Shown here piece after piece: positions 2,040-59,640 of a stretch of DNA of 64,000 bases (position 1 is the stretch's first letter; each line of letters starts with the position of its first letter). The position numbers and the translations under genes are program-made. The notes under the pieces are model-generated. The model saw nothing but the letters and a program-made list of their open reading frames with translations. It did no database searches and was not told where the DNA came from. The DNA is from Arctopsyche grandis (taxonomy: Eukaryota > Arthropoda > Insecta > Trichoptera > Hydropsychidae). The DNA lies in assembly GCF_051622035.1 (NCBI RefSeq), contig NC_135365.1, positions 2,842,501 to 2,906,500 on the forward strand. The letters are read 5' to 3'.

Positions 2040-2480
2040 ATGTACATATGGTAGCGTGTATGTTTAGCACCAAGTGATCAGTGGGTTTGATCCGCCATAC
2101 TGTTGGTTAGATTTGGGGGTATTTGGGACTCCAAATCGATCGTTTCTTATCAGTATTGCCAATTCATTGTTGAAACGGTTCCTCAAAATTGGCAAAAAAT
2201 CAACTTTCCTGTTGTCACAAATCTTCTGTATTTATTGTGTGTATAATTTGTAAAAATTATGTACAAAATATAAATCCATAGACGTCTCAATAGATTAATT
2301 ATGTAATTAATTAATTGATTAATTGTTATTTCGTGTTCTTCAGCTTCTGAAAATACAGTTATTTATGTAATAATAAAATGCTGCATTTATTGTAATTAAT
2401 TGTCCAGGAAGGCGCATTGGGGTCTTCCTGTAAAGCCTTCCTGTATACATATATGTAAAAATAAATATGTACAAACTAAT
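2040..2480 (+). mobile_element. tRNA-derived SINE, tail type B
   Basis: It carries the family core (CCAAATCGATCGTTTC, then TTGCCAAT, GAAACGGTTCC and AAATTGGCAAAA). It ends with the type B tail, in which CCAGGAAGGC and GCCTTCCTG pair around a loop starting GCATTGGGG, followed by an A-rich end at about 2455-2475. The head is degenerate. The same family recurs at least fourteen times in this window on both strands. Confidence 0.8.
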
Positions 2481-3480: not shown

Positions 3481-3960
3481 TTTTAGGAACCGATACTTAT
3501 GTTGGAGTTACTATGTTGGAGTTACACTTTGCACATGATCTACTCTTTAGTAGGACGTGGGGGTCCTGACTTTTGACTTTTATACGAGTGATTTACTTAA
3601 CCTTAGCTTATCTTGAGAGCTTGAGTGTACATAAATATGTAACATATGTAGTGTTTCAAATTCCAACATTAACTTTTGTGACATGTTTCTCTACTTGCAT
3701 TGTACACAAGACTTCAAGCGCTAATATGACCATACATGGGTTATTCTTAGCTGTCATTAACTGACAATAATTTTTTGCTTCCTGTTATGTGGCGCTCTGG
3801 ATGTAGCTTTATTGATTTTAAGTCATTATGGATGCAGTTTAACATCTACTGCTTCACTGTACTCAATTGAGACAATTCCCTTGTGTACAGGGGTGAGTTT
3901 TTGTTCCTACGACATATGTAGGTACTTCATTTTTATTTTATTTTAATTCAATTAAGCATC

Positions 3961-4270
3961 CACACTCGCCTAACAGATTGCTCCAAAGCGGCGAGTGTGC
4001 TAAACGGTTCACGGAAAAATGCACTAAATTGCACTGAATAATAGCGCAGTTTTAAGAAGTCCTAATTTTAAAAGGCGCTCAAAAAGAACTTACGCAATAA
4101 AATTTCACAAAAAAAATTAAGCATACAACTACCCTCGGATAACATACAACTACCCCTTGACGCTTTTTTGTGGAATTCTATTGCGCTAGTTCTCCTTGAG
4201 CATCTTTGAAAGTTTGGATGTCTCGAGAGTGCAACTATCTCTTGTGCATTTTTCCGGTCACCGTGTTAAA
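3961..4270. mobile_element. Foldback MITE
   Basis: TAAACGGTTCACGGAAAAATG at the left pairs with CATTTTTCCGGTCACCGTGTTA at the right, and internal segments around 4078-4110 and 4160-4200 also pair, so most of the 270 bases form one long imperfect hairpin. A separate small hairpin (ACACTCGCC / GGCGAGTGT) abuts it at 3962-3999. No coding capacity. Class not assigned. Confidence 0.65.
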
Positions 4271-5990: not shown

Positions 5991-6129
5991 ACTTTACCCT
6001 CATATAACAACTAGTAACCAGATGCACGGATACGTACACTCGACCATTGTCTGTCAGTTGAATGCGCATGCGCATTGTCGGTGTAATGAACGATAATTCG
6101 ACGAAATAAGCCATTTATATATGTACATA

Positions 6130-6260
6130 CTAGCTTTATTACCCGGCTTCGCTCGGTATTTGTAATATAAACCGCTTAAACATGACTAATCTAATAGTAC
6201 TAAGCCCGCTTTAACCCACGGGGTCTACGCCCCCTAGGGCTCCACCCTCGGCGCCTACGC
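6130..6260 (-). mobile_element. Helitron-like 3' end
   Basis: Read on the minus strand it ends CCGAGCGAAGCCGGG, a few bases, then CTAG followed by T. That is the small GC-rich hairpin, CTAG terminus and T-flank expected of Helitrons. The last 60 bases match the copy ending at 18670. The other end could not be located, so the full length is unknown. Confidence 0.5.
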
Positions 6261-7005: not shown

Positions 7006-7400
7006 CTAGCCAGCAGCGTGGCTCGGTGGTTGTCTTGATACTAAGCACCGAGAGATTTAAGCACCGAGTTTGATCCAAATGATTTATTCTGAGTATAGTC
7101 TTTAATGCTGTTGGTCAGACTTGGATATTTGTGATTCCAAGTCGATTGTTTCCTATCAGAGTTTGTCAATTTATCCGATTTTATTTAATGGTTCCAAAAA
7201 ATTGGCAACCCTGTCCTAACCCTTTCGCAAAAATCATCTCGTTTAGAAAATGTTGAAAACGTCACAAGCATTTCGATTAAAAATGCTGCAAAAATTTGTC
7301 CATAGATGTCTTTGTGGCTGTTAATCTTTTGACCGTAGATATCGTGTTTAATAAGTGTGAATACTTGTACCTGTTTAAATAATTATTAATTTGTATAGCA
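7005..7400 (+). mobile_element. SINE, head type A
   Basis: The head AGCCAGCAGCGTGGCTCGGTGG and ACTAAGCACCGAGAG is followed by the family core and ATAGATGTCTTTGTGG. The 3' tail is poorly preserved. Confidence 0.8.
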
Positions 7401-7884
7401 ATCTGTTAGACGAGTGTGCATGATTCATTGTATAAATAAGAGAGCAGAGAGACGTCAAACCGTTACCGTCAGCTATTTGGCCATAGCACGCATATCGAAA
7501 TATCAACATTATAATAAAAACATTTTAACATTCATTATTTAGCCTATTAGTGAAGTAAAATATATATGAGGAATAATGCGAGCTTATTGTGCAAATTTTA
7601 TAAGATATAGTGTGAACACGATAAAGCTATAGGCGTTTAAACAATTAAAATCTGACAAAACGAGTGGGGGGCGGAAAGGCAAACATATAGAGCTACAGGC
7701 TAGAGGCAAAGGGTAAGCTGTCACCGTCTCCAAAATTTCTGGATTCTTAAACGTGTTTATTGCGATTATATTTCACCAACGAATTAGCGGAAGCAGTTGA
7801 AATCACTGTTGGCGGCCAAACCTTGCAAAATGGCAAAGTTTCAAAGCAATCGGAAGAATGTAATAATATTTTCAGACCGATTGG

Positions 7885-8880: not shown

Positions 8881-9589
8881 TCGATTCGATTGATAGCGTG
8901 TCTTGTATAATTGTGCTTGCGAAAGTTGATTCAGGGCTGATCGGTTGCTCAATCTTGTCAAGCTTTCAGCGATTCTCTACCACTTTGTGTTCTATTATCT
9001 ACTACATTTCCAAGGATTTCTTCGACAATTACTCACATACCTTGTGACAAGTACTCTACAATACAATTGTATCTTATCCATTGTTCTGTACTATCTCCCT
9101 GGGTTTTGTTGCCTTTTAAAGGATATATGTAAGATTGTTGAAAATATAATCTATGTACACATCTAGTCGAACAGTAAAATAGTATGATTTATATTATACA
9201 TACAAACACACATCTCGATAGTTGTATTCATCAGTGTTCAACTAAAGAACTGGTTTCAACAAGAAGTTACATACATAGGTCTCAAAAGGTGGCCTATTTT
9301 ATAGCAATTCAACACGATAGCGAATGTTTGTCAATTTTATTCCAATTCCAATGTCGGTTTATTGAAAAATTCCCAACTTTCTATGGTTTAGCTTTGGAAG
9401 CTTCCACTCAGGCAAACTTATTGGAGCATTGAATAAGAGTATGAACTCGAGACTTTGAACCAAATTTACTAAACATTAATTTCATTGCATTTATATTAGC
9501 AGTAGGCAAAATTTAAATCTTGATTCCAAGCTTTATTGTGAACCTCTTAATATATATATATTAATTATTAGCGTGTGGAATCTATGGTC

Positions 9590-10660
9590 TATTTGGGTAT
9601 ATCACTTTTGATCCTCAACTCATCTTTCACAACCACATCAAGACAGTCGTTGATGTTTTCTTTCGTCAACTCGGATTTGTCTTGAGATATGCTAGGTTAT
9701 GCTCCAACCATTTGTTTTCTCGCTTGCTTTTCAACTTGCTTGTGAGAAGCAAGCTATAGATATCGTATAATGCGATTGTGTAGAATCCACATGAAGCAAA
9801 TTACTATCTAATGGTTGAGAAAGTGCAAAAAGCATTTCTTCGTATCCTACATATGTATGTATATATGAAAGAGTATGGGTATTACCCATATCTCTACCCA
9901 ATTATTATTTTCCTTTTGGGCATGCTTGGGTATAATTCCCTTGAACTTATCATTAATTAGTTTTTTTCTTCAGTTTCTACGTGATAATACGTCATGCCCG
10001 TCGTTGCTGGAACAGTTGGAACTTAATATTCCTAATAATTATTTGTGTGGTAGACATCATCATTTAATGCTTGTATGTACATATGTATGTACCTCCTCTT
10101 CACACAGTTCTTCATTGAATGGCTCCTATTCCAAGAGCTATCCGACTTATCAATGAAATCGTTGCTGCTGAGCCTAAATGTAATATTTCCTCCTCAGTGA
10201 GCGTAGGTTATCGGAGATTACTAAAACGTGTTTGTATGGTAGCCTGCGCTCATCATTATTTTCATAATTAAATGTAATGTATGAGTGGAATTTTGATCTT
10301 CCCTCATCCTTTTGGGCCTCGCAGGGATTTTTGTATTTGCGGCTGGTTCTTAGATATTGATACTGGCTGTAGATGCAAGACATTCCCTACTTCGTATTTT
10401 AATATTCGATATTTTTAATTTATCTGCTATTATTAAAATGCTATCGTTTTGTTATAATTATGTATACGTGTAATTTTGTCCGTGTATATATGTGTATATT
10501 TTTATTTTTCTCATCTCTCTGTATTATTTCGACCATTGTGGCGCATTAAGGATTCTGTAATGCCACAATGGTCCAAACTTAAAGTTTAATAAATGAATTA
10601 TGTATTATTCTTATTAGCTAGAACAACTTTGCTGACCGCGTATTTTACTCACTAATGTCA
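9590..10660 (+). mobile_element. Jockey/CR1-type LINE, decayed 3' part
   Basis: Translated pieces resemble the C-terminal part of Jockey/CR1-group reverse transcriptases: YLGITFDPQL at about 9595, LRQLGFVLRYARLCSN at about 9667, VEKVQKAFLRILH at about 9810, and LRDNTSCPSLLEQL then IPRAIRLINEIVA toward 10165. Several frame breaks show it is dead. The 3' untranslated end carries a perfect 12-base-pair stem-loop at 10531-10573 followed by AATAAATGAATT. Confidence 0.7.
10531..10573 (+). repeat. LINE 3' stem-loop (tail type C)
   Basis: GACCATTGTGGC pairs perfectly with GCCACAATGGTC around the loop GCATTAAGGATTCTGTAAT. A second copy, with the loop shortened, lies at 18731-18760. SINE tails in the window share the loop but not the stem. 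Confidence 0.8.
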
Positions 10661-11860
10661 TCTTAACTGAGAATTACGTTACGTATGTATGAGCGTGGGT
10701 AGTTTTAAAGCCAACTTATGGAAAAGATAAAAGATAAGAATGTTTACGAGCGAACTTCTTTTTATTCCTGCATAACTATGACTTAAGATCAAATAGATGA
10801 GTATCATTATTCATTGGTTATGTTTGAAGCGTAGATTCTATCACCTTGGAGAGCTATGGGGTCAACTGAATTATTTATCATCGAAGAAACTTCTTCCCAA
10901 GTGTATAACAGCTAATTGAAATCAGAACCTGCTAAAATCTTTTGGCAACACCTCATTCAATATCAATAACAGCGTCCTAAATATAGCCCACGATTCTCAC
11001 ACGACTTTTTTTTGTATCTCTGTAAGATGGTCTCAGCAACAGGGCATTCATTTAAATTTGATTCCATTCCACAATGATTATAATAACACTACTTTTTGAT
11101 CGGCCGACATGCTAACTGCCATCTCATACTGTGGCGTAGTGCTGGGTATATTCAAATTTTATCGTATCGATTTTTTTTCTTTCAATATCGTATATGAGCT
11201 TAATTTTTTTCCTCTTCTGGTCTTATAGGCAATCTATCCTCTGGACAGGTACCACTGTTTCGCGCAACGTTTGATGTGTCCGTTTTTTTTTTCTTCTTCT
11301 TCTTCTTCCAGCGAGTTTATTTCGTAACCGGCTCTCGGGTCCCACGTGTGGTGTGGCTAATCAAAATATTGTTGTCAGCGGTGTGTGTACCCTGAGGAAT
11401 GTGCTATGTACAAGTGGCTTTAAAAAGAAATGAGACGTAAATGAACGAACCCGGGTCCGGAGGCTGTTCAGCTCTGGTCAACGAACCCACGAACCAATGG
11501 CCAGGGGCGCTCCTCGCACTCTCGCACAGATCAAACGACACAAACAACCACCTGAGTTTAGATATGGTATGTACATATGCAATGAGATGCTGGGGACATG
11601 TCGTGTGTCCACTCGGTGAGCTAAGACTTGGCTCAAAGTTGGACCAAGTTGAGCTCAATGGCGGTGGAATCTTATTGCGATTATGTGTGGATGATCGCAA
11701 TGAGCTGACTTGACCCAGTTTTTAGTATGATGAGTTGAGCCGTTATCTTTGATCAGAATTTTGAATCAAATCTTACAGTTGTTGATTGTTTCTGCTCTGA
11801 TGACTTGCTGGAAATAAATGATCAAAGGATTTTGATGCTTCTGGATTCAACATTTTATAG
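10661..11860. other. No gene seen
   Basis: There is a CTT microsatellite near 11290. The two overlapping frames at 11404-11713 sit on opposite strands and have no recognisable domain. Confidence 0.45.
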
Positions 11861-11862
11861 TG

Positions 11863-12091
11863 GGCTACAGACGCTCCGGAATTCCGGAGAGGTCTACCTT
11901 GAGGTGACCCATGTTGACGCAGACAGCAACGTATGTAGGAAGATTCGTCTTTAGGTTGATTTACCTTGAGGTCGGCTCAACCTGTATGCGCTTCGACCTC
12001 AAGACGAATTTTCCTACACACGTTGCTGTCTGCGTCAACATGGGTCGCCTCAAGATAGACCTCTCCGGAATTCCGGAGCGTCTGTAGCCCC
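11863..12091. mobile_element. Long-armed foldback MITE
   Basis: Left arm starts GGGCTACAGACGCTCCGG and the right arm ends with its complement CCGGAGCGTCTGTAGCCC. The arms are about 95 bases each with few mismatches and leave only a short loop, so the element is essentially one hairpin of about 229 bases. Inside each arm is the palindrome CCGGAATTCCGG. Arm identity is high, suggesting fairly recent movement or selection for pairing. Confidence 0.8.
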
Positions 12092-12450
12092 TTCGGCATG
12101 CGTTGCAATGCCACAATAACACATGCAATTCCCGTTTCCGTTCCCGTCTCAAGTGATGGTTGGAGCTCAACTAACGTCTCTTCAAAACCGTGTCGTCATA
12201 AACCAACTGGTAACGTGGCTACCAACGAACACATTTCCTTGCCTAAACAATGGCGCTTCAAAGTTTCGCGTCGGTAAAATCGTAATTACGAATATTATTA
12301 TTAAGAGGTTTTTTCCCTTTCTTTTTTCACAGTAAGCTTCCCGTACATGCATACAACAAATCCTGAAAGTTCCATCGTAATCGGTTGAGTGGTTTAGAAG
12401 CCTATACGAGACAGACAGACATTCAATTTTATATACATATATTGCATTAG
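12092..12450 (-). mobile_element. Helitron-like element, truncated at its 3' end
   Basis: It is the reverse-orientation relative of the complete copy at 30850-31265. Shared parts are TGCGTTGCAATGCCACAATAA, GGAACTTTCAGG with the ATCGGTTGAGTGGTTTAGAAG stretch, and the ACATTCAATTTTATATA start. The CTAG end is missing where the foldback MITE abuts it, so the MITE landed in or beside it. Confidence 0.55.
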
Positions 12451-13425
12451 TATGAATGTAATTTGATGAGAGCCAAACTTGTCCGAGATTTGAACGTTGT
12501 CAATTAAGCTCATTTATCATTGTCAAAAGCGTTGATATCAACTCTCATTGGTATTAGCTACCGGTTGACATACTAATTGGTTACACATTTTAAACTCTAA
12601 TGCTACATTTTGATGTTCTAATATAATTTCTGGAGTGGCAAAATAATATAAATTTTAATACTATATGTAGGTAGATAGTATATTCTTTTCTCTATCTTTT
12701 ATATTATATTATATAATGATTAAGACATTGAATGAAATCCACAATTTCCTGAACTTTGAAGGTTTTTAGAGCATGTTCCAATACTTCAACTATGAAAATA
12801 CAATGACTCTTTTGTATTTATGTTTACAATTAAGGGTGCCCCCCCCCCCCTCACATATTTTTGTCCAAAAAACTAACTTGATATATTTTATGCAAGGAAA
12901 AATGACTTTTTTTAACAAATTATCGACTTCTTTTACAATATGTTCTAAAAAGGAAAAAATGCGATTAATAATAAATATATAATTAGAAAAATGAAGAATA
13001 TACATATGTAGATGTTACCTTCCAAAATATAGTTAAAATGTTTAACACCCCTGTTTACAATCATAGTCAAAATTCTGACAAATTGGTAAACTTCTTCGTT
13101 TTCACTGAGTAAATATAATGCTTATTAAAATTTGAAGATCTAGATCGCATATTAATAAAAGACAAATATATGACGATAGTTATATTAGCTTCTTGACCGG
13201 TTTCCAAATGACTAAACTTTTCTACAGTACTTTTAATGCAGAATATTGACCATGATCACATTGATCTGAAACTTTCTTCCTCAGACAAGATAGCATTTTT
13301 GACGTGTTTTTCCAGTGATGACTAGAGGTAGGACCGGAAGCGTGCCTTTTATTGTTCAATTGTTGTAAATCCTTTGTAAAAAAGGTTCGGCAAACCTTTA
13401 ACAATGCATTTACAACATTTTAACA
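12451..13425. other. No gene seen
   Basis: AT-rich, with a short poly-C run at 12839-12850. Frames on both strands overlap and lack coding character. About 13240-13420 may be the 5' part of a decayed element preceding the LINE end. Confidence 0.45.
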
Positions 13426-13429
13426 ATAT

Positions 13430-13866
13430 ACAGCCCCCTCTGGGTCCGGGCTTTAGTGATGACGTATGGATTTGAAACTTAGACATTGAACGCCAAGTTA
13501 TTAAACAAAGTCCAATGCAGTCAAATAAGTATGGAACATTGTATTCTTGGCATAACGAGCAAAGACAGAAAACAGATAAGTATGACAAGAGTAATGGATA
13601 TAGTGGATAGAGTGAAGAGATTGATATGGCAATGGGCGGACCACGTGGCTAGAAGAATGGACGAAAGGGGGAAAAAAGAAGTGCTAAAATGGTACCCGAG
13701 AGAATGCAAAATAGTAAAAAGAAAACCGCAGGGAAGATGGGTAGACGACATTAGGAAAATGTGTGGGGTGAGATGGATGAGAGTTGCACAAAACAGAGAC
13801 GAGTGGAAGCGTGTTGGAAAGGCCTTCATCCATCAGTGGATGGTGAACGGCTGTAGATGATGATGA
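13430..13866 (+). mobile_element. RTE-type LINE, 3' end of reverse transcriptase ORF
   Basis: A 124-codon open frame (13486-13860) has the C-terminal signature of insect RTE-type endonuclease-reverse transcriptases: LGITSKDRKQ, VKRLIWQWADHVARRMD, KRKPQGRWVDDIRK and RVAQNRDEWKRVGKAF. It is followed by the ATGATGATG-type simple tail expected of this clade. It is 5'-truncated. Related fragments lie at 17.4, 42.8, 44.3 and 47.2 kb. Confidence 0.85.
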
Positions 13867-13869
13867 TTA

Positions 13870-14940
13870 AAAAAACTCCTATTTTATTTGCCTCTTGATC
13901 TCTATTGTTACTGAGATATTGTTAACTCTATTAATGAATTTAAATGACAATTCGATTATGTTATTGTTCCAATAGCAAGTCCTTCAATACTAGATCGGCT
14001 TTTAAATATAGCTTTTTTGGATATTTACAGAATTTAAACTGTCAACTACAGATAGTGTGTAAAATATACGGAGTTCGATCTGCCTAAACATTTTCAATCC
14101 ATCTGATTATGTACTGCAACATTTACCAAATTACCCAAAACGAATTACCATACGAAAGAAAATTCTTAGAGTAATTTTAAAATATCAACACAACAGTATA
14201 CATTAATAAGATCGCCTCTCGTTTATTACATACATATTATTGTTCGACAACAAGCACCAGTCTTCCCTTTTGTCGACGAGTTGTTTCCACTTTTAATTTT
14301 GGGCAATTTGGTCGGTTTTCGGTCGGCAATTTGAGCCTCTTTTTTCTCGTTTTTTTTATTCTTATTTTTTGTAGCCGAGCCTATTTCATGAATTCGCTCA
14401 TTTTTTCGAGAGATCGGGCCCTTTAATAATATATTCGATCGGCATGCCAACAGCCCGCGGCCATCTCTCCTCATAATTGTTGCATTTATTATGTGCAATA
14501 AGAAGGGCATTGAGTGCGTCTTACATATTATCATTATCTGCATACTCAACGGCGATATCAAAGGTGCAGCGGTTTGTGACAGCCCTGATTCTCACCCTGA
14601 TAAGGCTAGGTATTTAATTATACTGTAAGTGAAACCTGAGAAAGGTAGGGGAGTCTTCTTGCTCGGTGAAGTGTTAACAGTCAGTAATTATAATGCCGAG
14701 GAAAAGGAACAGGATTCTTAACAATTGTTATTAGTATTGTTAAACGAAATGGCTGTAATTAAACGAGGATGTTGTTAAAAGATCAATTTTCATATATGGA
14801 AATTATTATACAGGTGGATTCGTTGGTTTGAATGGAACTATTTGTTTCAATTGCTTGATGGCATTTCAAGACAGATTTCATCTGAATGTTTCATAATTGA
14901 TGTGTTTGCAAACAAATTGGCAGAAAAGTTTCTGGTAATT
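13870..14940. other. No gene seen
   Basis: A 111-codon minus-strand frame at 14226-14561 has a lysine-rich, low-complexity end and no known domain, and I do not call it a gene. Confidence 0.4.
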
Positions 14941-14961
14941 CGTCTGTCATTAAAGAGACCG

Positions 14962-15032
14962 TAGTACTTAGCAGGTAGTAGGTAGTAGGTAGCAGGTAGT
15001 ACTTAGCAGGTATTAGGCAGTACTTAAAGAGA
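14962..15032 (+). repeat. Short imperfect tandem repeat
   Basis: Variants of GTAGGTAGCAG follow one another, then a second block with TACTTAGCAGGTATTAGGCAG. Confidence 0.6.
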
Positions 15033-15149
15033 CCGACAGCTCATATGTCAAACATAAGAGGTTTTTGCTCACAACATCACTGTCTTTCAAAGACAAATAA
15101 AATAATCACAAAACATCAAAGGGAAGTTTTATGATAACCAGCAACATGT

Positions 15150-15340
15150 TAATTGGATTATTACGCACATTTCAATCACCCAAAAGACAATTTTTGCCAT
15201 GAAAATCGCGAATACGGAATATTTGGTACTCGAGTTCACGTTAGTATGATGGACTTTTCGGCTGCCAGATGATCTGTTATAGAGATTTTAGTGACTTTTG
15301 GGCGAGCGCTTTGTGAGCAATAATCACTGAACCCTGCAAA
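15150..15340 (+). repeat. Dispersed repeat, also at 60.2 kb
   Basis: The stretch with AATTTTTGCCAT, AAAATCGCGAATACG and AATATTTGG recurs in the same orientation at about 60200-60330. A shorter inverted relative is at 56330-56410. Class unknown. Confidence 0.6.
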
Positions 15341-15344
15341 ATAT

Positions 15345-15685
15345 GTATATCAGTGGTTAGCATGTAATGCTTTCGATTGTGTGGTTCTATCCTTGCCTTT
15401 GTTGCTAGCCAGACCTTGGATATCTGACTCCAAGGTTGATCGTTTCCTTTCAGAGTTTGCCAATTTATCTGATTTCATTGGAAAAACAAAATGCCTATCC
15501 TATCCTATATCTCAAAGAATTTGAGTTTACAGTATCTCAAAATTTGTTGATATTTAAAAATTCTGCAAAGCTTTATGCATAGATGTCTCTATGATGATTC
15601 TAATGTTTGATGAGCGATGTTTGTAATTAGCCTTGAATAATACTTATAGGTGTAAATCTGTATTAATAAATAAATAACTACTTTT
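15345..15685 (+). mobile_element. SINE, head type B
   Basis: It begins AGTGGTTAGCATGTAATGC and continues TTGCTAGCCAGACCTTGG into the usual core, ending near ATAGATGTCTCTATG and an A-rich tail. Confidence 0.75.
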
Positions 15686-15689
15686 AATA

Positions 15690-16485
15690 TGGTTGTAATA
15701 TATGACGAAGTTTAGGCTTTTTTCAATAATGATCTTAAAATTGAATTTTAATAAAATGTAGATAGAATTTGAAGAGTATAGTCCGTTGTATTATATCTCG
15801 CTACGATAAACATCGAAGCTTAATACTCAATGAGAAACTTTTATGATTTCTTGATGAATAGCCATCTGTTAATGATTTTCTATTAATAATAGCTGTTAAT
15901 GATTTTCGTACTTGCCAAACATGGGACTTAATTGCTTAGAGATCTGTAGCAATTATCGTAACTACAGATTTGATCTCATCATATTGAGGGATAAATTGCA
16001 CAACTTGAGTTGTATAATTTGAACTAAAGGGGAAAAAATAATAAAAATTTTCCCTACAAGTCGTTGAGCTATAAGTTGTCAAACAAATCGCTCCATTAGA
16101 TAATTATCAATGTAGATAGACAATTGCATTTCTAATTTTAATGATTATTGACCGCAATAAATATAAAATATTTTGAGTCCTTGACAAACCTACTACCAAC
16201 TACCTTCAAATCAATTTTGCAATATTTTACTATACTACTTAAATCAAGAGATAAATTGCACTTTGATTGGGTGCTTTAAGGAATTTTACCATATTAAAGG
16301 TGAAATGAAAAATACTACCGACTACCAATTGATTTGTCCCCATATGTTTACAGGCGATAAATCATCCAACAAATTGCGTCAGTTGCTAGTTAATAAAACA
16401 GTTTTTTTACTAATATTTTAATGATTATTGACCCTTAGAGTCATCTTCAAGTTTATATTGTAATCATTATATGCATATTTTTTGT
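15690..16485. other. No gene seen
   Basis: AT-rich. Two stretches (about 15950-16090 and 16230-16390) look like diverged copies of each other around GATAAATTGCAC. Confidence 0.45.
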
Positions 16486-16489
16486 TTTG

Positions 16490-16928
16490 TTTTTACATAT
16501 ATTTGCCACAGTGACATTACAAAATACTCTAACGTGTCACTGTGACCAGACATATAAGTATAACACAAATACTTTGTATAAGAATACAGACATATAAGCA
16601 TGATACAAATACTATATATATAAGAATTAGCGAGACATATATGTTATAGATAATAAAATTTTCATTCAAATAGTGGTGACATAGAGAGTAGGATGGTTTT
16701 TGCCAATTTGATGTAGGAACCGCTTCAACAATGAAATCGGATAAATTGACAAACTTTGATCAGAAAGGATCGACTTGTAGTCACAAATACATCCAAGTCT
16801 GACCAGCAGAATTCAAGATTATACTCGGAATCAATTCTTTTCAATCGAGGTCAACTCACGGAATTGAACCCAGCAACCTCTCGGTGCTTAAGTATCAACG
16901 CAACCACCAAGCCACGCTGCTGGCTAAT
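16490..16928 (-). mobile_element. Full-length SINE, head A with tail A
   Basis: The minus strand reads head A (TAGCCAGCAGCGTGGCTTGG, GGGTTCAATTCCGTGAG), the core, then the tail A stem-loop at 16505-16547 in which CACAGTGACA pairs with TGTCACTGTG. It is followed by an A-rich end. This is the best complete A/A copy in the window. Confidence 0.85.
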
Positions 16929-17245
16929 ATATACATGGGAAGTCACAACGAATACAATCAATCTGTAATGATATTTGGATGTATAATATGTATGTATATC
17001 TAGAAAGAACACCATTTAGCCAAATTTCATACTGAATCATCCTGTACAAAATACGTACTTCAATACAAAATATTTACATTCTATCCATAATAATTACCCG
17101 GCTCATGAATCCGTAGATGATAATCACCGGTGCCCGTAATTATATCGCATATTATAATGTTGTACGTGTAAAGTCGCGGAACCGTTACGATTACACAAAA
17201 CGTTGTATAACTTGTGCTAAACAAAGGTAATTTTTATTTTCGCAG

Positions 17246-20200
17246 ACGCTTCATCTTCCAACGAAGCCGTACATCTTCAGCAGCGTTTGCGCAGCCTAAG
17301 CACCGAGTTGGTAACGTTGAGGAATCGACTGCACGTCAGCCAGCCGACTCCCAACAAACAACCGGTGCTACAGCCTCAGGTGGGTACCATTTTGCTCAAA
17401 TTATAGAATAATGTTATATTAACTATGCATAAACATCGGAATGGTAAAGAATAGTTGGACGAAAGAGGTACTCAAATGGTACCCAAGAATCAAGAGGATG
17501 TTAAAGGAAGCAAAGAAGGGTACAGTGTGTGGGGTTAGGGTATTGAAAGTTGCTCGGAATTGACAAGTGCTTCATTCAGTAGTGAATAGTTTGTAAATGT
17601 TAACTTTAACAAATTAATTGAGGAATCAAATACGTGTGACATGTGTATAGGAAGAACTGGTGATGAATTGATGTGGTTTTTCAAAAAGGATCCAACCCAT
17701 TTGAGCAAAATTTTGATTATATATTGTAAATATTGTAAAAAGATCACTCATAAATTGAACTCTCTTAATATCTGTCAATTTTTATTTAACACCAACATTT
17801 GTAAAAATTTGTTGCTCTACTTTTTTAGTGTATTCTGTAAAGTAAAAGTTGCTGCTTTGTATTATATACATACATATATATTTTCCATTCAAAATTTAAC
17901 ATGTTTTAATTGTTGTAATAATTGTTTTTTATCAAAATTTCAACACAAGCAACCGTCAAATAAATCGCACATGCCATTTTAAAGTTCACGCAAAAGTTGC
18001 TACTTCATATTGCACACCGTTTGGAAGTTTTTAAATCAGGCAAACTTTTACCAATAAGTTGGGTTTTAGTTTGATAGTAATTTAAAACAATGCAAGCACT
18101 AATATCAATCTCAGAATGATAACAATATTGTTGCTTGTTTGGAAATGCTCTATTTTGGCAACACATCAACACACGACAACTGTTGCTGCAACTATCAAAA
18201 AATAACTACATAACGAATTTTTTTTTGACAGAATTTCAACAATATATAATACATATGTACATATATAATTTTTATAGTGGATATACGCAAGTTGCCAATA
18301 TATTATAGCTAGCAACTAATTCCAAAACATTGTTGCTTCTATGTTAGAATTGTAAAACATGAATCAACAGCAACTTGTATCGTTTCTGGATGCTATAATA
18401 TATTCATTCGATTATATTTGGATGTAGATTATTTATTTTAATATTATATCTAATATATATTTTCGAAACAGACTTTGTATGTATGTTTGTTTGTTTGGTT
18501 CGTAGAATCCAAAGAATAGAATTTAATAAAAAAAAAACAAAGGAATATTCAAACAAATTTACATAAAATAAAACTATTCAAATAAATTCAATCAAATGTT
18601 TACTATTAGATTAGCCATGTTTAAGCGGTTTATATTACAAATACCGAGCGAAGCCGGGTAAAAACACTAGTATTCGATATTTTCACTTTATTTTTAAATA
18701 TATTTTTTTCTCATCTCTCTGTAGTTTTTCGACCATTGTGGCGCATTAGGGACAGTGGTCCAAACTTAAACTTAAATAAATGAATTATTCCTATTATATT
18801 AGCTAGAACAACTTTGCTCACTACTTTCATCTTAACTGAGAAATGCCACTTAAATGGTCCAAACTTAAACTTATATAAATAAAATAAATAAATATATCAA
18901 CAATGTGCTGCCAGTGTTGCTTGTACACAAAAATAGTTGCCGGAAATTAATTGCTTTTGAGATTTTGCTAAATCAACACGTTAAAAGTATTGTAGAACTT
19001 GCGTTATATGTATTCATGTCATACATGCAACTTTAGTTCCACAGATTCTCAAGATTTTTTTTTCACTTTTGAATTAATGATAAATAATTTCTACAGGTAC
19101 CTATCGGTGGATTTGGCCAAGGTCAACCGTCACTTCAGGGAGGGCCGGTGGTTCCTCCGAGGCACACTCCGGCACCCCTACCTCCCCCTCATCACCTCCC
19201 AGCCCAGCCCCCGGGTAAGTCCGCACCAATTATGTATATACCCCACCGTTCGTGGAATATTTACATGTGTGTAATTTGTGGTCGTTGAGTACTAATTTTT
19301 TTTTTTGATATTTTCCCAACCGTTCAGAGTCCAATGTGTCGACGTTCGGTGTGATGAAGATCGGGCGGGCGGTGGGGGCGGCGCCCCTCGAGGGCGGAGC
19401 CCCGGCCGAGGCTGGAGCGCGCGCCCCCCACCTGCCCGACCTGACACACCTGACGGGACCCCTCACCGAAGACGCCGTAATCAAGTGTCTTCAAGCTAAA
19501 TTCTACGCTAACAAATTCTATGTAAGTACATATCTATATACATATATAAAAATCAATGTTTGTCTACTACGTATCCCGCATTTCTCGTCAAGCCCATACG
19601 AAACGTAGTACTACGTAAGGGCCGGGCCGCACCGTGAAACTTTGTCGGCCGACTAGTTGCACGACACGAAAAAATGTATGGAAATGTGTGCGAAAAACAA
19701 GTTGACAGGTGTGGCATGTCCCATCTACCTGCATGCATTGGTCTGGTCGCCCTCAACCAAGTCGCTCGCAAGTCGCACGGTGCGGCCCGGTCCTAACCCG
19801 CCAAATAGCAACAGTAGTTGAAAAACGTAGTACTACGTAACTCGCTTAAGGTGTGTTAGAATTAAAGAGTCATACATATATTAAAAACTACATGAAACCC
19901 GATGTTAATGCATACTTAGGGTTGTCAGGCGTCCCGATTAATCGGGATTGTCACCAGTTTTAAGTCTCGTGTCCCGTTGTCCCGAACAAACCTCTCGGGA
20001 CCCAAATGTCCCGGTTTACTACTTTTTAAATTCCTACAGAAGTTTTTAACTCTGAATTAACATTTAAAAGTCGATGTCTGGACCAGACAGTCTGGTGAAC
20101 ACTGCAGCAATATTCAACAATGAACTATTTGTCTCTGTCTTTCTCTACTTTCTGGAGAACTAAGTGTAGAAGGGAGACAAAAAATGTGTATTAGGCATCA

Positions 20201-23200
20201 ATCAATTTATCTTGAATCGATAATTTTCTCACACTCAGAATGAATCATCACACGCAGACACGGAATAGACATCGTCAGAACAGAAAGACTAGAAGATTTC
20301 TGTGATTTTGCTAATATTGAATATAAAAATCTACTCTCACATTCAAAAACTAGGTGGCTATCACTATAACCTGCAATAGAAAGCTATTTGAAGCTTTAAA
20401 ATCTTTTTTTTAGCTGAAGAAAAAGCACCAAAAACCTTATTAAATGTTTTCACTAATCCTATCAGTGAAGTCTATCTTTGGTTTCTTCATTGTAATTGTA
20501 AAACTTTTCATTTACACATATTAAAAATAAAAGGGAAAAAAAGTCGATTATAGATATTCTAAATATTAGGGATATTTGTGACTCCAAATCGATCGTTTCT
20601 TACCGGAGTTTGCCAATTTTATCTGATCATTGTTGAGACGTTTCCTCAAAATTGGCAAAAATCATCATCAGAAATCTTCTGTATTTATTGTACATATGTA
20701 CAATTTGTAAAAATTATGTAAAAATCTAAAATCCATAGATGTCTCAATTCCCGGTTTGATTTGCATGAAATCTGACAACCCTACGTACGAGTATCTGAAT
20801 TCGAAATCGTTGAATAAATAAGCAAGTTGTAGAATGACACTTGGTAGTAGCGTGAGACTTGCGAGAACCGAGCATGCTGTCGCATTCGTACAATATGTTG
20901 TAACACTGAAAGGACGTAAAATAATTTCTTTATTTTTTTAATTATTTATTATTTAACAATATAATTCAATGCTAGGCCTTTAAAAATATATTACTGTAAG
21001 TTTTGCTGTCCATAACATGACGTTGACAATTACTTTTATTGTCTAAAAAATATATATACGTATTCCATACATAAATTAATAATATCATCAACTTACATAT
21101 TGTATATTACAATTTTATTAATGTAAATATTTCGGTCGGTCGCTCAGGGCATCTTCGACGTCCGGTTACTTCCCTATTGTTTAGGCATGTACCCGGATAT
21201 GTATTCCCACGACACTCAGTCCAACGGTATCGGTCACTTCTGAGAAGGGACCAATAGCGGCCAATTCGGTGGCCATTGCTTAGCCTACTTGCACTTAGTC
21301 TAGAGATAATCCTTGAAACCAATTATAACGGTAACACAGTCTCTGGGATGCTACTCGGCCTAATCCGATTGCACTTACTCGGCGGTGTACGTAACATTAT
21401 TATACATAATAAATTAAATAAATATTGTTGATCATGCAGGGATATTATCACTAATTAAATTTAGGCGTATAATAATTTAATTACGAGTCTTGCAATAACT
21501 GAATTCGACTGCTTATGTATAATTTTATTTACAAATTACAAAATACAATTTGTACGCCTATAAATGCATGTCAATCGATAATTGAAAATCAATTTTTCAT
21601 ATGAAAATTTTCTTTTCAATTATTTTTAACGCAATTCCCTTTAAAAAATGAATAAACACAACATCATTCTGTAATATTTATTAGAAACATAAGCTAGATT
21701 TACACAATTTGAATACTCATCGAGCACACACGTGTGTGTGTGTGTGTGTGTGTAATAAATAGCGGAAAACATCTTCGCAGTGTAATGGACCATTAACGAA
21801 ATTAAAAATTAGTTATGGATGGTAAAAAAAAGCCGCCAATTATGTATTACATAAAAAAATAAAGTCCGTAATTGAAATTGAAATTTATTATTGATTCCGG
21901 CCCGTGGAATTCTGCCGTATGGATAATTTTCCCCGACGGTCGAGGAAAACGCGTGGAAAATTTCATTTGAAAATATCGATGCGGAAAAATTCGAAACATT
22001 TCCGACATGCCGTCTGGTGTTGTTGGCGAAAAAAAAACTGAAAGTAGTATTTCGACTTTTATTCAGAAGCCGTGGAAGAGCTGATTATTATAGCCGGTGG
22101 TTCTGAACGTGGCTCTCGGAGACGATCGTCCCTAAAATGGAAGTCAGACTGTAAAATAAAAACCTCAATAAAGTTAACGAGACGAGACATTTTTTTATGT
22201 TTGCCGTCAGTGGGATTCCAACTTTAACCGTTTCGGTGGTTCCGGCTTCTTCGCGCAACCGTTTCTTTTTGTATTTATTTTTTGTTATTTCCCCCCCCCC
22301 CTCCCCTTTTAGCCTGACACTTCTTCTATAACAGAGATTCGTAACCTTTTCCATTCTATCGTCGCCTTTTGCCGATCTTTTTTCTTCTCAGAAAGTATGC
22401 TTAAATGCATTAACCAGCAGCGTGGTCTAGTGGTGAGTGTTTAATTCTTTCGTGCATTATGTCACGGGTTCGATTCCCACTAGAGTCGTTGTTGGCCAGA
22501 CCTTGGTTTGTCGAGGTCGATCGTTTCTTATCAGAATATGCCAATTTTTATGATTTTCATTGAAACGGTTCCTGTTAAATTGGCTTTTCCTATCCAATTT
22601 TCTCTTGTAAACCTTGATTTGTTGTTAATCAGGTTTCGTCTGATTTTTCACCTTAGATGTGTGGTTGTTTATTGAATGTAAAAATTCGTATTGTTACATG
22701 AAAAATGTTATTGAACGTATTTATACGATGTTTGTAATATCTGACCATAGATGACAGTTATTGTTTCGATTTACATGTATATGTAATTGGCCAGGAAGGT
22801 GCATTGGAGTTTACCTGTCAGGCCTTCCTGGTATAATATAAATAAAAATAAAACTAAGAAATTTTTTTATAAAAATATATACTTTATATATATAACAACG
22901 TGGTTGATACGTTGTTATATAGCCGGCAGCATGGCTCGATGGTTGCGTTGATACTAAGCACCGAGAGGTCGACGGGTTCGATCCCGTGAGCTGATCTCGA
23001 TTGAAAAGAATTGAATATATATAGAATTTTAAAAGAGTATAATCTTAAATGCTGCTGGTCAGACTTGGATATTTGTGACTCCTCTTATGTCACCACTATT
23101 TGAATATTTATTTTTTACATACCATATATACCAAGAAGCCTAAAAGGTGAACCCTAATGCGCCTTCCTGGCCAATTACAAACAATGATATATAATTTTTA

Positions 23201-25906
23201 GAATAATTTTATTAAAGGATTCATAGACTTCTATTGATAAGTTTACCCGGAGAGATAAGAACCCGATAACTGAGAGGTTACTCGGTTAGATCCCGTGCTA
23301 ATCTTTAATGTTGCTGGTCAGACTAGGATATTTGCGACTCCAAGGCGATTTCATTGTTGAAAAAATCTGATTTTATTGTTGAAACGATTCCTCCACCAAA
23401 TTGGCAGAAACCATTCTACCGGCTATGACCTATGTATTTCACCACTACTTGAATGATTGAATGATTTCAAAATTTTACTATCTATAACATAGGTCTCTCG
23501 ATAATTTGAATACGATTTCAAAAATTATCTAAATATAACATAGATGTTTCGCTAATTTTCTTTTATAAAGTATTTGTATTGTGCTTATACATACATACGT
23601 ATGTCGGGGCACAGTGACGCTTTAGAGTATTCTGTAATATCAATGTGGCTAGTATGTAAATAAAAATAAAATAAAATTTAAAAATTCGCTTTACAGGGTT
23701 CTGGGTAAATTCTTCGAAAATGATTAGTTCGAAATCAATTGCTCGGTTTGGTCAGTGTATGTACATATATATACAGTTACAGTCCAAGTGTACATTTCGT
23801 TCGTTCATGTGTACATACTAGTTTATTCATACACGAACCAATCTGGTCACTTATAGTGTACACAAAAGAACAAATTGACAAACGAAATAGTTTGTTCATG
23901 CACCAACTATTAATTTAAACTCAATCGTTTGTAATGTGGTTTCCATAGGATTTCCATTTTATATACTTGGCGTCTTGACATCTCAAAGGTTTTGACGGCT
24001 AAAAGTTTCATGCGACACCTGGTGAGTCTATTTGAAGATAGCTTTTGACTGTTGGTACTTGAACTAAAACCAATAGTTCATGTATGAACAGACTAGTATT
24101 TTTATGAACGAACTAGAGTGAATATTTGGATTGTAGCATAAATAGTATATGTTCGATACAGTGTACGTCAAATAGAAAAGAATTTTATATATGTATATGA
24201 TCCAACTTTAAACCATGGATCTGCAAACCAGTGTAAAATTTCCAGTCCAACATATCAGGAAAGTTCTAGATTTTAATTCGACTTGAGATAAAATTTGATT
24301 TTTTTTCTATCACTGGTATTTTTATGGTAGTTGTTGATGCTGATGATTTACTGATCTGACTGGAGTCTGTGAATCACTGGTTAAGAACCTCTGTTCTATA
24401 ATATAAGCGGCGAAAAAAGACGTTCCATTTGTGCTCCATTAAAATTAAGTCTCGTGACGTGACTGATTTTTTTTTTATTATTCTTTAATCTCAAACGTGT
24501 TTCATTAAAATTGAATTTTGAGAAAAAAATTAATGAACTCTCCGATTCTTTCATTGTGTAAAAGGAAATCATTGTTGTGATTAATTCGATCGGATCTGTT
24601 TCATGCTTATTAAAAAGAAATGCACTTTCTTATTTATCTCGTATTAACTTTAGTTTTTATCTAAATATAATCTGATGGATAGATTTCTCACGTTCCCGAT
24701 TCATTCTGAAAAAAGTTACCACTTTTCGTGGGGTTTATTGAGTTGTCACTTAATTTTGACGAATTTTCTATTGAATCTGTAAATCTTACGTATTGCATAT
24801 GTAAATATCACTTCATCATTAATTCTACATGCTACCAACTTCATCATTAATTCTACTCAGGCATGCCAACCTAATCATTCATACATGCACTCTTATAAGT
24901 TTCAATAATAGTTCCTACACTTATTTAAAAAAAAAGGTGATGTTTTGAAAATGCTTAGGTAAAACGCATATACTGTCCTTTTCATTTCGACCAACTGCAT
25001 TTCGTATATAGTAATAGTGTAAATCTCTAATCATTATACACTGACTAGTAAGTGTATGCATTTTCAAAATCTCCCAGTAACAGTATCCACGGCAGAAAGA
25101 ATGAACATGTTTACTAGTAAATTCATACACTAGCCATCTGTACGCAGTCAATTTTTACGAAAGGAGTAACAAGATGACATTCTTAACAAGTATATAGCCG
25201 GGCTATGACGGATTAAACTAAAAACTGAAAGAATTCGACATTATATCGAACATATTATTAATGAACAAAATAAAATGTAACCTAACCTAAAATCGTAGGT
25301 AATACGGATGTTCGTAATTGTTAAACTTCTGCAGTGGATTTAAGCTTGTTAATTATTGTCTATTTCGTATCAATTCAACAATAAATTAGATATTTGAACA
25401 CAACCAGTTACATATATTCTTGAGCATGAAATCCATTGCTCAATCAAACTTTGGTCAGCTGTCAGACCACTAAAATTTCATTCGTTATCAAATTAACTAG
25501 TGCACAGCAGCAAGTGCATGAATTTGCGCGTCAGTGTATACTTTGTCTAGTCAGAGTATCTGCGGAATCTAGTTTCGTAAGCTTTAGCTAAAAACCAAAG
25601 CTAGTGTACACACTTACTAGTCAGTGTATACTGATTCAAGATTTGACGCTCTTACTGTAACACCTATACGAAATGCAATTGGTCGAGAGGTCCATATACG
25701 TTTTACCTAAGTCTTTTTTTACAACGGATAAATTATAGTAGCTTTGAATTTAAAATACATACATACGTCTATTTTGTTATGTCCACGCGTTGAAATCACA
25801 GTAGCTCGTATTCCTTTTTAGAAGAACTTTATTCAGCCCTTGAGTTGACATTTTCCTCAGATTATTTTGACTCACATTACTCTGTTTGCTACCTCAGACA
25901 TAAGTA

Positions 25907-33900: not shown

Positions 33901-36900
33901 TGGAGCACTTGTGCATAAACTTATGCGCTGAAACGATGCAGCACTTTTACAATACACACATTTTTAAATCTAGCATTGAGTCTTGTCGAGAGGAAGGGAT
34001 ACAATGTGATTTGGAAGTTGACTATGTTGATAACGTGCCGTGTATTGATTTGATCTCTTCTCTTCGTACCGGACTTTTGAGTATGCTTGATGTGGAATGT
34101 TCCATACGAGGTACAGCTGAATCGTACATTGCCAAAATGAAAGTGCAACACAAAGCCAACACGAGATTATTTGAGCCTAAACCTCTAGAGCCGAGATTGT
34201 TCGGCATACAACACTTTGCCGGGAAGGTTATATACGATGCCTCTGGATTTTTGGATACAAATAAAGACGTAGTGCCCGATGATCTGGTGGCTATATTTTA
34301 CAAACACACGTGTAACTTTGGATTTGCAACACACCTCTTCGGGAGTGAGCTCAAAGCTTTGTACTCATGTGAAACGGTTCCTAGAGGAGTCAGTTTTAGA
34401 ATATCTCCCACGTCTCACACTGACTTGCTGAACGGAGACGAGCCTGTTTCTACCCTCACCCAAGACTTCCACACGAGGTTAGACAACCTTCTGAGGACAT
34501 TAGTGCATGCGAGGCCTCATTTTGTCCGGTGTATACGGAGCAATCAATCAGAAACACCGATGAGATTCGACAGGGCTACAGCTATACGCCAAATAAGATC
34601 GTTACAAATTTTAGAAACGGTAAATCTGATGGCAGGTGGTTATCCGCACAGGATGAGGTTCAAAGCTTTCAATACCCGATATCGACTGTTGGCACCGTTC
34701 AGCCAATTAAGGAGGGTTGAAGAAAAGGCGACCGAGGATTGTCTCTTGATTCTGCAGCATGCCGTCAATTCGGCGTCAAAGCAAGAAGATATAGTAGTAT
34801 CTACGAACTATGCGTTGGGTAAAAGGCATATATTTTTAAGTGAAGGAATTCGGCAGCAGTTGGAGAAGATGAGGACGGACACGAGGCAAAGATCCGCCAC
34901 TATAATACAATCTACGTGGAGGGGGTGGCATCTGAGGAAAAGATTTGCTACTTTGAGGAAAGGTCAAGTGACTGGACGTGTGACAAACGGTAATGGAATT
35001 GTGGGGGCTATGTCAGGAGTGGCACCAGCCGTCACGGGGAGGACGGCAGCCATCACCAGCGCTCGTCCCAGACCTCAACCAATAGCCGGTACACCTCCAC
35101 CTGATCCCACAGATAAATGTGACACAAAGATGATACAGCAGACGTGTAATTTATTCGGATTGGACTTGGTAATTTAAATTTTCTTTAAGCGATTATAAAA
35201 ATCATTACAAAATGTTCTCCCATTTGAAGTGATCTTGTTAAAATATTTGAATCTTTTGAGCATTATATTTATTTATTTATTTTTACATACATATATACCA
35301 GGAAGACCTAACAGGTAAACCCTAATGCGCCTTTGTGACATAGTAGGTAGAAAGGATTTTTAGCCAATTTTTAATCGGGAACCGTTTCAACTCTGATAGG
35401 AAACGATCGACAAATATCCAAGTCTGACCAGCAGCATTACAGATAACTCGGAATAAATTCTTTTAAATCGAGGTCAACTCACGGAATCGAACCCGGCGAC
35501 CTCTCGGCGCTAGGCAAAAGCCCAACAACGGAGCCATGCTGCTGGCTATATGCTTTTGGTGCTCTAATCCCAAGATGTTCCTCTCAAGATTACAACACTA
35601 AATCTGACGAAAACTTTGGATTCAATCATAGATGTAGAATAACCTAGATATGCCATTACATACAAATTTCGTTGGAGATCTTGTCGCCACTAACTGAGGG
35701 GTGCGGAGGGTTTAACTAGCAGGGAAGTGGGGAAAAAAAGGAAGGAACGCAGTGGTCAGCAACCAGTTTATGTACACATGTACATGCACTGAAGTTTTAT
35801 TTTATTTATAACTTTATTTTATTGGACACTCCGCGTGACAGTAAACCAAACTAATAAATTCATATTAAGAAAAAAATATTTAGCTATACACACTATATTA
35901 AACTACAAATTTATGTTACTATAATAAAACCATCATTAACTATTACAATATTTAAACATTAGTAACTTCCACAAGGATCAATTTTAAAGCTGACACTTTA
36001 ATATTTAGTTCATTGTTTGTAGTTTTAAACTTAATATCGATTTCTGAATTTCCTTCAGTGCCAACAAGATATACCTGTGGCAGAGGTCGTCGACCGCTGT
36101 TCCATCAGTGCTTAGAACACTACATACATCGCGCCGATATATCATTATATGTTTAAATACTACTATAATTGAAGACATTATATATTAATTCTTACTTATG
36201 ATATGTGATACCATCCGCCTTTTTATGTTTTCTTGAGTAATTGTAATACAATTTCACTGAATACGTTGGCATTTTCGAATCAATTTCGAACGCCAATCAA
36301 TCTTCCGACTTAGAAGCTAACTAGGTACTGAGAGAGAGTGTGCATGCACTTTACTTTCCTTTGGGTTTACATGCACCAAAAGGGTGATCGGCTTAGAGCG
36401 TCAGGGCGTATCTATGTATTCTATATCTATGTCATCAGATGTATTCTTAACGACTCGAGACCCAAAGTCTTATTTTTTACTTTTACATACTCATTAGTTA
36501 GTCTTCACAGTTTTGGCGATCTTTCTTCCCTGAATGAGGAATATGTCTACAAAACTAAGGCAACAAACTTCCTTGATATGTTTATTCAATCTACTTGTAC
36601 TCAATTCTTGAATGGGAGAGCATTTTTTAACATCAATCAGATCAGAGCAAACCTCTACAGCAAAATATATCAATATTCTAATGAAATCTTCATTTTTCAG
36701 GAACGTCCACCACCCGTGCCTCCGAGCAGACCGTACACGGTAGCTGGCAGTCTAAAGTTAGGTTACCCGCAGACGAGATTGATGAAGTTGAACTTCCCAG
36801 ACCTGCCAGAGGGTAGTTGTGACTACGTCCTCCGCAAAGGAGACACGGTGATAGTGGTCGGTGCTTCACCCCGTCGAGGACATTTGATCGTCGAGCACAA

Positions 36901-48761: not shown

Positions 48762-49262
48762 AACCAGCAGCGTGGTCTAATGGTGAATATAGAATTATTT
48801 CGTACTTGATGTTACGAGTTCGATTCCCCGCTGTCTCGTTGCTGGCCAGACCTTGATTTGTCTAGGTCGATCGTTTCTTATCAGAATTTGCCAATTTTTC
48901 TGATTTGCATTGAAACGATTCCTGTAAAATTGGCGTTTCCTTCCCAATTTTCTGTTGCGAACCTTGAGTTATTGTTATATCTTAAGTTTCGCCATATTGC
49001 TCACCATAGATGTCTCTGTGGTTGTTTATCGAATATAAAATTCGTATTGTTACATGAAAGTTATTCATCGCTATTTATCGTATTAATACGATGTTTGTAA
49101 TATATGTATACCGACCATAGATGTCAGATATTTAGATTTACATGTATCTATGTAATAATTATGTGGACCAGGAAGGCGCATTTGGGGTTTACCTGTTAAA
49201 CCTTCCTGGTATATTTGTATATATGTATGTGAAAATATGTATGTAAAAAATAAAAATAAATA
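48762..49262 (+). mobile_element. Full-length SINE, head B with tail B
   Basis: The head AACCAGCAGCGTGGTCTAATGG and box B GAGTTCGATTCCCCG are followed by the core and tail B (CCAGGAAGGCGCATTTGGGG ... CCTTCCTGG), ending in AAAAATAAAAATAAAT. It shares the head of the 22.4-kb copy and abuts the inverted LINE end on its left. Confidence 0.85.
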
Positions 49263-59201: not shown

Positions 59202-59640
59202 TAACCAGCAGAATAGACTAGCGGTTAGCATATAATGCTTTGAACAGAGTGGTCACGGGTTCTAATTCCACTGGTTTCTAATTCCACTGGTTTCTGCTGG
59301 AACCTTTGATTTGTGACTCCAGGTCGATCGTTTTCTATCAGAGTTTGCCAATTTATCTGATTTTCATTGAAACGGTTCCAAGAAATTGGCAACCTTACCC
59401 ATTTTCTCACAAAATCTCGAGTTTTCAGCAATCTCGAATTTAACTGAATTGTATAAAATGCTGCAAATTTTCAAATTTGAACATAGATGTAGTATGTAGA
59501 TGTTAATTGATATGTATTATATTTATATATTTTGTATAATACTAATAATATTTGTATCAAATGTACAATGTTTCTGGCCAGGAAGGCGCATTGGGGTTAC
59601 CTGTGAGGCCTTTCTGGTATAAATTAAAGATAAAAAACAT
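59202..59640 (+). mobile_element. Full-length SINE, head B with tail B
   Basis: The head (ACCAGCAGAATAGACTAGCGG, box B-like ACGGGTTCTAATTCCAC) carries a small duplication of CTGGTTTCTAATTCCA. The core and tail B (CCAGGAAGGCGCATTGGGG ... GCCTTTCTGG) follow, ending in an A-rich run. Confidence 0.85.

What the first reader, a model, noticed from the sequence alone, without database searches (positions are those of the whole stretch)
10531..22831. SINE and LINE tails share a stem-loop whose stem sequence has been wholly replaced
Three tail types have the same fold and an alignable loop, but unrelated stems. The LINE tail at 10531-10573 has stem GACCATTGTGGC/GCCACAATGGTC and loop GCATTAAGGATTCTGTAAT. 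SINE tail A (16505-16547, 23609-23650) has stem CACAGTGACA/TGTCACTGTG and a loop with TTAGAGTATTCTGTAA. SINE tail B (22791-22831, 2405, 49170, 59578) has stem CCAGGAAGG/CCTTCCTGG and loop GCATTGGGGTTTACCTGTTA. Both arms of each stem are complementary although the sequences differ between types, which is covariation. Known LINE/SINE pairs share 3' sequences recognised by the reverse transcriptase. Here the fold and loop appear to be what is kept.
Basis: partly seen in the sequence, partly recalled or inferred. Interest (0 to 1): 0.75.

Follow-up and report, generated by a model that had tools for sequence, protein, structure and literature searches.

The report
LINE and SINE tails share hairpin
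In what looks like insect DNA, short parasitic elements and a longer jumping gene end in the same kind of RNA hairpin, whose loop letters are kept while paired stem letters change together, as expected if the jumping gene's copying enzyme reads that hairpin; a similar pattern is already known from plants.

Summary
A covariance model finds eleven hairpin tails in the window: one on a LINE-like copy, the rest on SINEs, SINE fragments or (type C) behind a SINE. Built from types L, A and B, it found a fourth type, C (4002-3958, minus; E 4.5e-5), with a perfect 10-bp stem unlike those it was built from. Two-sided changes occur in 6 of 10 outer and 1 of 4 inner pairs. The stems are not 'wholly replaced': in representative copies LINE shares 6 of 10 pairs with A and 6 of 10 with B, though A and B share only 4. 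The 'loop' is an internal loop plus a 4-bp inner helix. Fifteen SINE loci share all or part of one core but carry A, B or C tails. Best reading: stringent-type LINE tail recognition, with SINEs borrowing tails from related LINE subfamilies. Precedents: monocot L1/SINE tails with compensatory stem changes (PMC3747384) and zebrafish stem swaps (PMC4176376), though stem changes harmed eel UnaL2. New member of a known kind. Limits: four independent types, no genome held, no LINE with stem A, B or C seen, LINE clade unknown.

The parts
9560..10573 (+). 5'-truncated, decayed LINE-like copy 1 (start approximate): C-terminal part of a reverse-transcriptase ORF (about 9560-10260, frameshifts and stops) followed by a 3' UTR with hairpin L
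   Evidence: three-frame translation; LINE character recognised from recalled C-terminal motifs, no Pfam match above cutoff
10531..10573 (+). hairpin L: 12-bp perfect stem GACCATTGTGGC/GCCACAATGGTC
   Evidence: 51.4 bits; z -4.99
18731..18760 (+). hairpin L of LINE copy 2; 3' part of the loop and inner part of the 3' arm deleted
   Evidence: E 0.075
16504..16547 (-). SINE tail type A on SINE S6 (16930-16504)
   Evidence: 10 of 10 pairs
23607..23650 (+). SINE tail type A on SINE S10, decayed stem
   Evidence: 7 of 10 pairs; z -0.23
2402..2446 (+). SINE tail type B on SINE S1
   Evidence: 9 of 10
22789..22833 (+). SINE tail type B on SINE S8 (22411-22860)
   Evidence: 10 of 10
23129..23172 (-). 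tail-only B fragment (S9b) beside truncated SINE S9; one base lost in the 3' arm
35296..35339 (-). SINE tail type B on S11; 5' arm partly lost at a junction with the SINE body
   Evidence: 8 of 10 pairs
49166..49211 (+). SINE tail type B on SINE S12 (48761-49240)
   Evidence: 9 of 10
52602..52646 (-). SINE tail type B on SINE S13
   Evidence: 8 of 10; z -0.20
59576..59619 (+). SINE tail type B on SINE S14
   Evidence: 10 of 10
60008..60055 (+). remnant of tail B on SINE S15, interior deleted (start approximate)
3958..4002 (-). new tail type C: stem CACACTCGCC/GGCGAGTGTG, loop GCTTTGGAGCAATCTGTTA; lies behind SINE S2, separated from it by about 50 bases and a DNA-transposon-like insert
   Evidence: found by model R1 that did not contain it (E 4.5e-5); (z -3.27)
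7397..7439 (+). 3' half of a type C tail on SINE S4 (5' arm lost)
   Evidence: blastn 84% over 45 nt
54393..54449 (+). degenerate type C-like tail; none of the 15 SINE loci lies upstream of it
   Evidence: blastn 78% over 58 nt

Best explanation
These hairpins are the 3' recognition signals of a stringent-type LINE lineage, and the SINEs carry copies of them so that the LINE's ORF2 protein accepts their RNA as template for target-primed reverse transcription. The outer stem is read largely as a helix of fixed length, so its letters drift with compensation. The internal-loop letters (GC.TT on the 5' side, TGT.A on the 3' side) and the inner helix are read more specifically. The tail types L, A, B and C most likely come from different subfamilies of one LINE clade, and the SINE core has exchanged tails among them. 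Shown: relatedness of L to A and of L to B, fold, compensatory changes, one SINE core with different tails. Inferred: recognition by the LINE protein, and LINE subfamilies with stems A, B and C.
For: Hairpins at the 3' ends of SINEs and in the 3' UTR of a LINE-like copy. End-to-end alignment without structure. Two-sided changes in 6 of 10 outer and 1 of 4 inner pairs; 21 such cells against a shuffled mean of 8.0, 0 of 500 shuffles as high, slid controls at most 8; on the MAFFT alignment 13 against 4.9, 0 of 500, slid at most 3. Type C found by a model lacking it. Tail exchange: S2 lies before a C tail, yet its body is 79.5% identical to S8 over 278 nt and 88% to S12 over 193 nt, both with tail B; S4 carries C with a core and body related to S14 and S15, which carry B. 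Published: in zebrafish ZfL2-1 and ZfL2-2 a stem swap kept activity (about half of wild type in ZfL2-1), a loop change or stem disruption abolished or strongly cut it (PMC4176376, sections read).
Against: Only four independent tail types; 7 of the 11 aligned tails are of type B. The number of pairs with two-sided change is not above shuffles (7 against 5.3, 82 of 500; 5 against 3.9, 156 of 500). A against B is chance-like in the arms. No LINE with stem A, B or C is in the window, and no SINE with stem L. In both LINE copies about 100 bp of further shared sequence follows the hairpin. The LINE identity rests on recalled motifs and its clade is not established. The alignment was fitted to the structure. 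In eel UnaL2, changing stem sequences strongly lowered retrotransposition even with the loop spared (PMC4176376 discussion), so stem letters are not always free.
Confidence: 0.65

Rival explanations
1. One and the same LINE protein mobilises all four tail types, reading only the internal loop, the inner helix and the presence of a stem; stems vary freely and the SINEs changed them in place.
For: Loop letters are kept across types; zebrafish stem swaps kept activity; related SINE bodies carry B or C tails.
Against: The apical loop differs between types; S2 has about 50 bases between body and hairpin C that S8 and S12 lack, which fits capture of a larger 3' piece better; in UnaL2 stem changes were harmful.
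Confidence: 0.25
2. Stem covariation arose without selection: template switching within the hairpin (quasi-palindrome correction) copied one arm onto the other, producing matched changes in clusters.
For: The compensated differences between representative copies all lie at pairs 4 to 9, and 4 of the 11 tails have a full 10 of 10 outer stem.
Against: Does not explain the conserved loop letters or the inner-helix A-U/G-C change, nor the hairpin's place at the ends of both LINE-like and SINE copies.
Confidence: 0.1
3. The LINE tail and the SINE tails are unrelated hairpins and the loop resemblance is chance.
For: A against B is weak over the whole hairpin and chance-like in the arms.
Against: LINE against A: 0 of 20,000 random hairpins as similar; 10 motif hits against 0.14 expected and a fourth type at E 4.5e-5.
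Confidence: 0.03

Closest known systems
Monocot L1-lineage LINEs with maize and sorghum SINEs (Ohshima 2013, PMC3747384; section 4.3 read, legend of Fig. 8 seen as a passage)
   Same: 3' hairpin shared by LINEs and SINEs, compensatory mutations in a variable stem, conserved loop letters, read by the author as stringent tail recognition
   Different: Plant L1 clade; conserved UCU loop and CGAG flank; here probably an insect, other loop letters, an inner helix, and three stem types on SINEs with one core
Zebrafish ZfL2-1 / ZfL2-2 and eel UnaL2 (L2 clade; PMC4176376, introduction, two results sections and discussion read)
   Same: Stem-loop in the 3' tail needed for retrotransposition; in the zebrafish LINEs the stem is exchangeable and the loop specific; upper and lower stem regions
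   Different: Vertebrate L2 clade with assays; in UnaL2 stem changes were harmful; here no assay and clade not determined
Lepidopteran SINEs PxSE5/SfSE1 with PxLINE1 (PMC8010984, 12 of 16 passages seen)
   Same: Insect SINEs sharing 3' tails with a LINE; tail exchange proposed
   Different: Sequence identity of tails is reported; the words stem-loop and hairpin have 0 occurrences in its main text

Membership tests
SINE/LINE pair of the stringent type | LINE and SINE share a related 3' tail | tested here: met
   tails are related, not identical
SINE/LINE pair of the stringent type | tail forms a stem-loop with conserved loop | tested here: met
   (7 of 9 tails folded)
SINE/LINE pair of the stringent type | a LINE with the same stem as each SINE type | tested here: inconclusive
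   none in the 64-kb window; whole genome not held
SINE/LINE pair of the stringent type | hairpin lies at the 3' end, followed only by a short A/T-rich or simple tail | tested here: inconclusive
   by eye met for 11 of 12 SINE tails, S4 less clear; for both LINE copies about 100 bp of shared sequence follows
SINE/LINE pair of the stringent type | retrotransposition depends on the tail | not testable with these tools
   needs a cell assay
tRNA-derived SINE | tRNA-like head with A and B boxes | tested here: inconclusive
   B-box-like word within one mismatch in 5 SINE loci, S8, S9, S10, S11, S13; A box judged by eye; box consensus recalled; ARAGORN finds 0 tRNAs
L2/CR1-clade LINE | reverse-transcriptase phylogeny | not tested
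   only a decayed C-terminal piece is present; no Pfam match above cutoff

The most novel reading that the evidence does not exclude
A single insect SINE core has repeatedly changed the stem of its tail (A, B, C) while keeping the internal-loop letters, so that one LINE protein reads all types: a natural stem-swap experiment that isolates which tail letters the enzyme reads.
Probability: 0.25. Interest if true: 0.5.

Novelty: new member of a known kind. Interest (0 to 1): 0.36.

Why it matters
It offers a natural test, probably in an insect, of a published two-part recognition model (stem read as shape, loop read as sequence): four stems on one loop, three of them on SINEs with one core. The covariance model made here could find partner LINEs and SINEs that a plain sequence search may miss, as it did with type C.

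Tried and rejected
Whole-genome search: no genome held, so genome-wide consensus, copy numbers and a search for LINEs with stems A-C could not be done. Public collections: tail and core patterns gave 0 matches in viral contigs and the B loop 0 in genome contigs; one 23-nt core match in a goat-omasum Bacteroidaceae MAG has only matches of 12 to 26 nt to the SINEs and is taken as chance. A LINE peptide matched 41 stretches by pattern in viral contigs, none confirmed as a relative. Rfam: no family at gathering score. My first hairpin scan with loop similarity was too loose, returned many chance hairpins and its output was cut; it was replaced by the covariance model and the motif test. The idea that the tail at 35339-35296 is an A/B hybrid was dropped: its 5' arm sits at a junction with the SINE body. 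The MAFFT alignment with C shifted one C arm by a base and lowered pairing to 84.4%; the model alignment places it. A second model with the inner helix found no further type: below E 0.1 it lists the same 11, four opposite-strand readings of known hairpins (E 0.0017 to 0.045, expected since stems are palindromic) and LINE copy 2 (E 0.069). Sequence words of the tails and core were not found in the paper library; some searches were the topic searches, and only the sections and passages named were read (also passages of PMC6740152). I make no claim that this family is unpublished beyond these searches.

Full report
What the window is. No genome is held for it. A long ORF (33273-35177) that I recognise from memory as a dachs-like unconventional myosin points to an insect; the species is not known.

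The hairpins exist. The LINE tail at 10531-10573 is an exact 12-bp stem with the loop as stated. Tail A at 16504-16547 is on the minus strand; the second A copy (23607-23650) is decayed, with 7 of 10 pairs and a fold no better than shuffles (z -0.23). Tail B occurs at the four stated places and at three more (23172-23129, 35339-35296, 52646-52602, all minus), plus a remnant on SINE S15. I folded 9 of the 11 tails with short flanks: 7 reach z -3.07 or lower, 2 (23602-23656 and 52650-52598) do not.

Stems are related, not wholly replaced. MAFFT, given no structure, aligns the tails end to end. On the model alignment, with one copy per type (L, A1, B4, C), LINE and A have identical outer pairs 2, 3, 6, 7, 8, 10 and compensated changes at 4, 5, 9; LINE and B identical pairs 1, 2, 3, 8, 9, 10 and compensated changes at 4-7; A and B share only 4 of 10. 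Against random hairpins of the same composition, the LINE/A score was reached in 0 of 20,000 trials for either A copy, LINE/B in 0.19% or 0.005% depending on the copy, and A/B in 2% to 20% (loop alone 0.1% to 3%). The 5' arms alone are more alike than chance for LINE/A (about 1.7%) and for one of two LINE/B comparisons (1.0%; the other 6.6%), but not for A/B (36% to 56%).

Covariation. On the MAFFT alignment of 8 tails, 5 of 10 pairs have changes on both sides, 91.3% of cells pair, and 13 cells carry two-sided changes against a shuffled mean of 4.9 (0 of 500 as high); slid controls give at most 3. With 11 tails aligned to the model and an inner helix added, 7 of 14 pairs have two-sided changes, 91.5% of cells pair and 21 cells carry two-sided changes against 8.0 (0 of 500), slid controls at most 8. 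The count of such pairs by itself is not above shuffles (156 of 500 and 82 of 500). Seven of the 11 tails are of type B, so the effective sample is four types, and the second alignment was fitted to the structure.

The loop is structured. Columns 19-22 pair with 28-31 (UAGA/UCUG, UGGG/CCUG, UGGA/UCUG; 93.2% of cells, one pair with A-U to G-C change). Between the outer arms the invariant columns are C15, T18, T19, G23, T30, T32 and A34: four in the internal loop, two in the inner helix and the first base of the apical loop, which otherwise varies.

A fourth type was found. Model R1, built from 8 L, A and B tails, finds 4002-3958 (minus) at E 4.5e-5. Its stem CACACTCGCC/GGCGAGTGTG is perfect and its loop GCTTTGGAGCAATCTGTTA matches a motif restricted to letters seen in L, A and B, though I wrote that motif after seeing C. 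The motif hits the window 10 times, each with at least 8 of 10 flanking pairs in the best of nine small offsets; 200 shuffles average 0.14 hits. Half of a C tail also ends SINE S4 at 7397-7439, and a degenerate one lies at 54393. A second model finds no fifth type.

The carriers. Fifteen SINE loci share all or part of a central core (sequences, blast table), with by eye two kinds of tRNA-like head. Tails: A on S6 and S10; B on S1, S8, S11, S12, S13, S14, S15; C on S4 and behind S2; none recognised on S3, S5, S7, S9. Tail types do not follow body types: S2 is 79.5% identical to S8 over 278 nt and 88% to S12 over 193 nt, yet S8 and S12 end in B and S2 is followed by C. An insert with 21-nt terminal inverted repeats (4004-4264) and about 50 further bases separate the S2 body from its hairpin, so that link is less sure than the one of S4, whose C tail lacks the 5' arm.

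The LINE. Upstream of hairpin L, frames at about 9560-10260 read like the end of a LINE reverse-transcriptase ORF; this rests on motifs I recall, since Pfam gives no match above cutoff. A second copy (18731) has a shortened hairpin. In both, about 100 bp of shared sequence follows the hairpin, and copy 2 then repeats part of the tail. I take this as read-through into flank in a progenitor, unproven.

Mechanism. Hayashi and others (PMC4176376, sections read) showed in two zebrafish LINEs that the stem may be swapped if pairing is kept (about half activity in ZfL2-1), while the loop may not, and proposed that a conserved protein region reads the stem and a variable one the loop. The same paper recalls that in eel UnaL2 stem changes strongly lowered activity, so stems are not free everywhere. 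The pattern here is what the two-part model predicts. Ohshima (PMC3747384, section 4.3 read) described compensatory changes in a variable stem with a conserved loop in maize and sorghum LINE/SINE tails. So the kind is known. What is added is a probable insect case with four stems on one loop, tail exchange on one SINE core, and an inner helix.

Noticed in passing
4004-4264 (-): DNA-transposon-like insert with 21-nt terminal inverted repeats (86% complementary) between SINE S2 and its C tail, with a longer inner inverted repeat of 69 nt arms (75%).
   Followed up: partly
18601-18673 and 6127-6199: A 94.5% identical 73-nt repeat followed in the first copy by CTAGT; it resembles a Helitron 3' end from memory.
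   Followed up: no
18855-18886: LINE copy 2 carries a second, partial tail about 100 bp after the first (90.6% over 32 nt).
   Followed up: partly
55071-55370 and 61923-62222: 300-bp direct repeat at 98% identity, the most alike long direct repeat among those listed (20 of 44 families shown).
   Followed up: no
43352-43906 (+), 47397-47738 (-), 48444-48776 (-), 13483-13860 (+): ORFs that read like C-terminal ends of other LINE reverse transcriptases (recalled); the first has a zf-RVT match below its cutoff. No tail of this family at E below 1e-4 beside them; one weak hit at 43630-43607, E 8.8.
   Followed up: partly
38040-38695: Tandem units about 232 bp apart, 85-91% alike.
   Followed up: no
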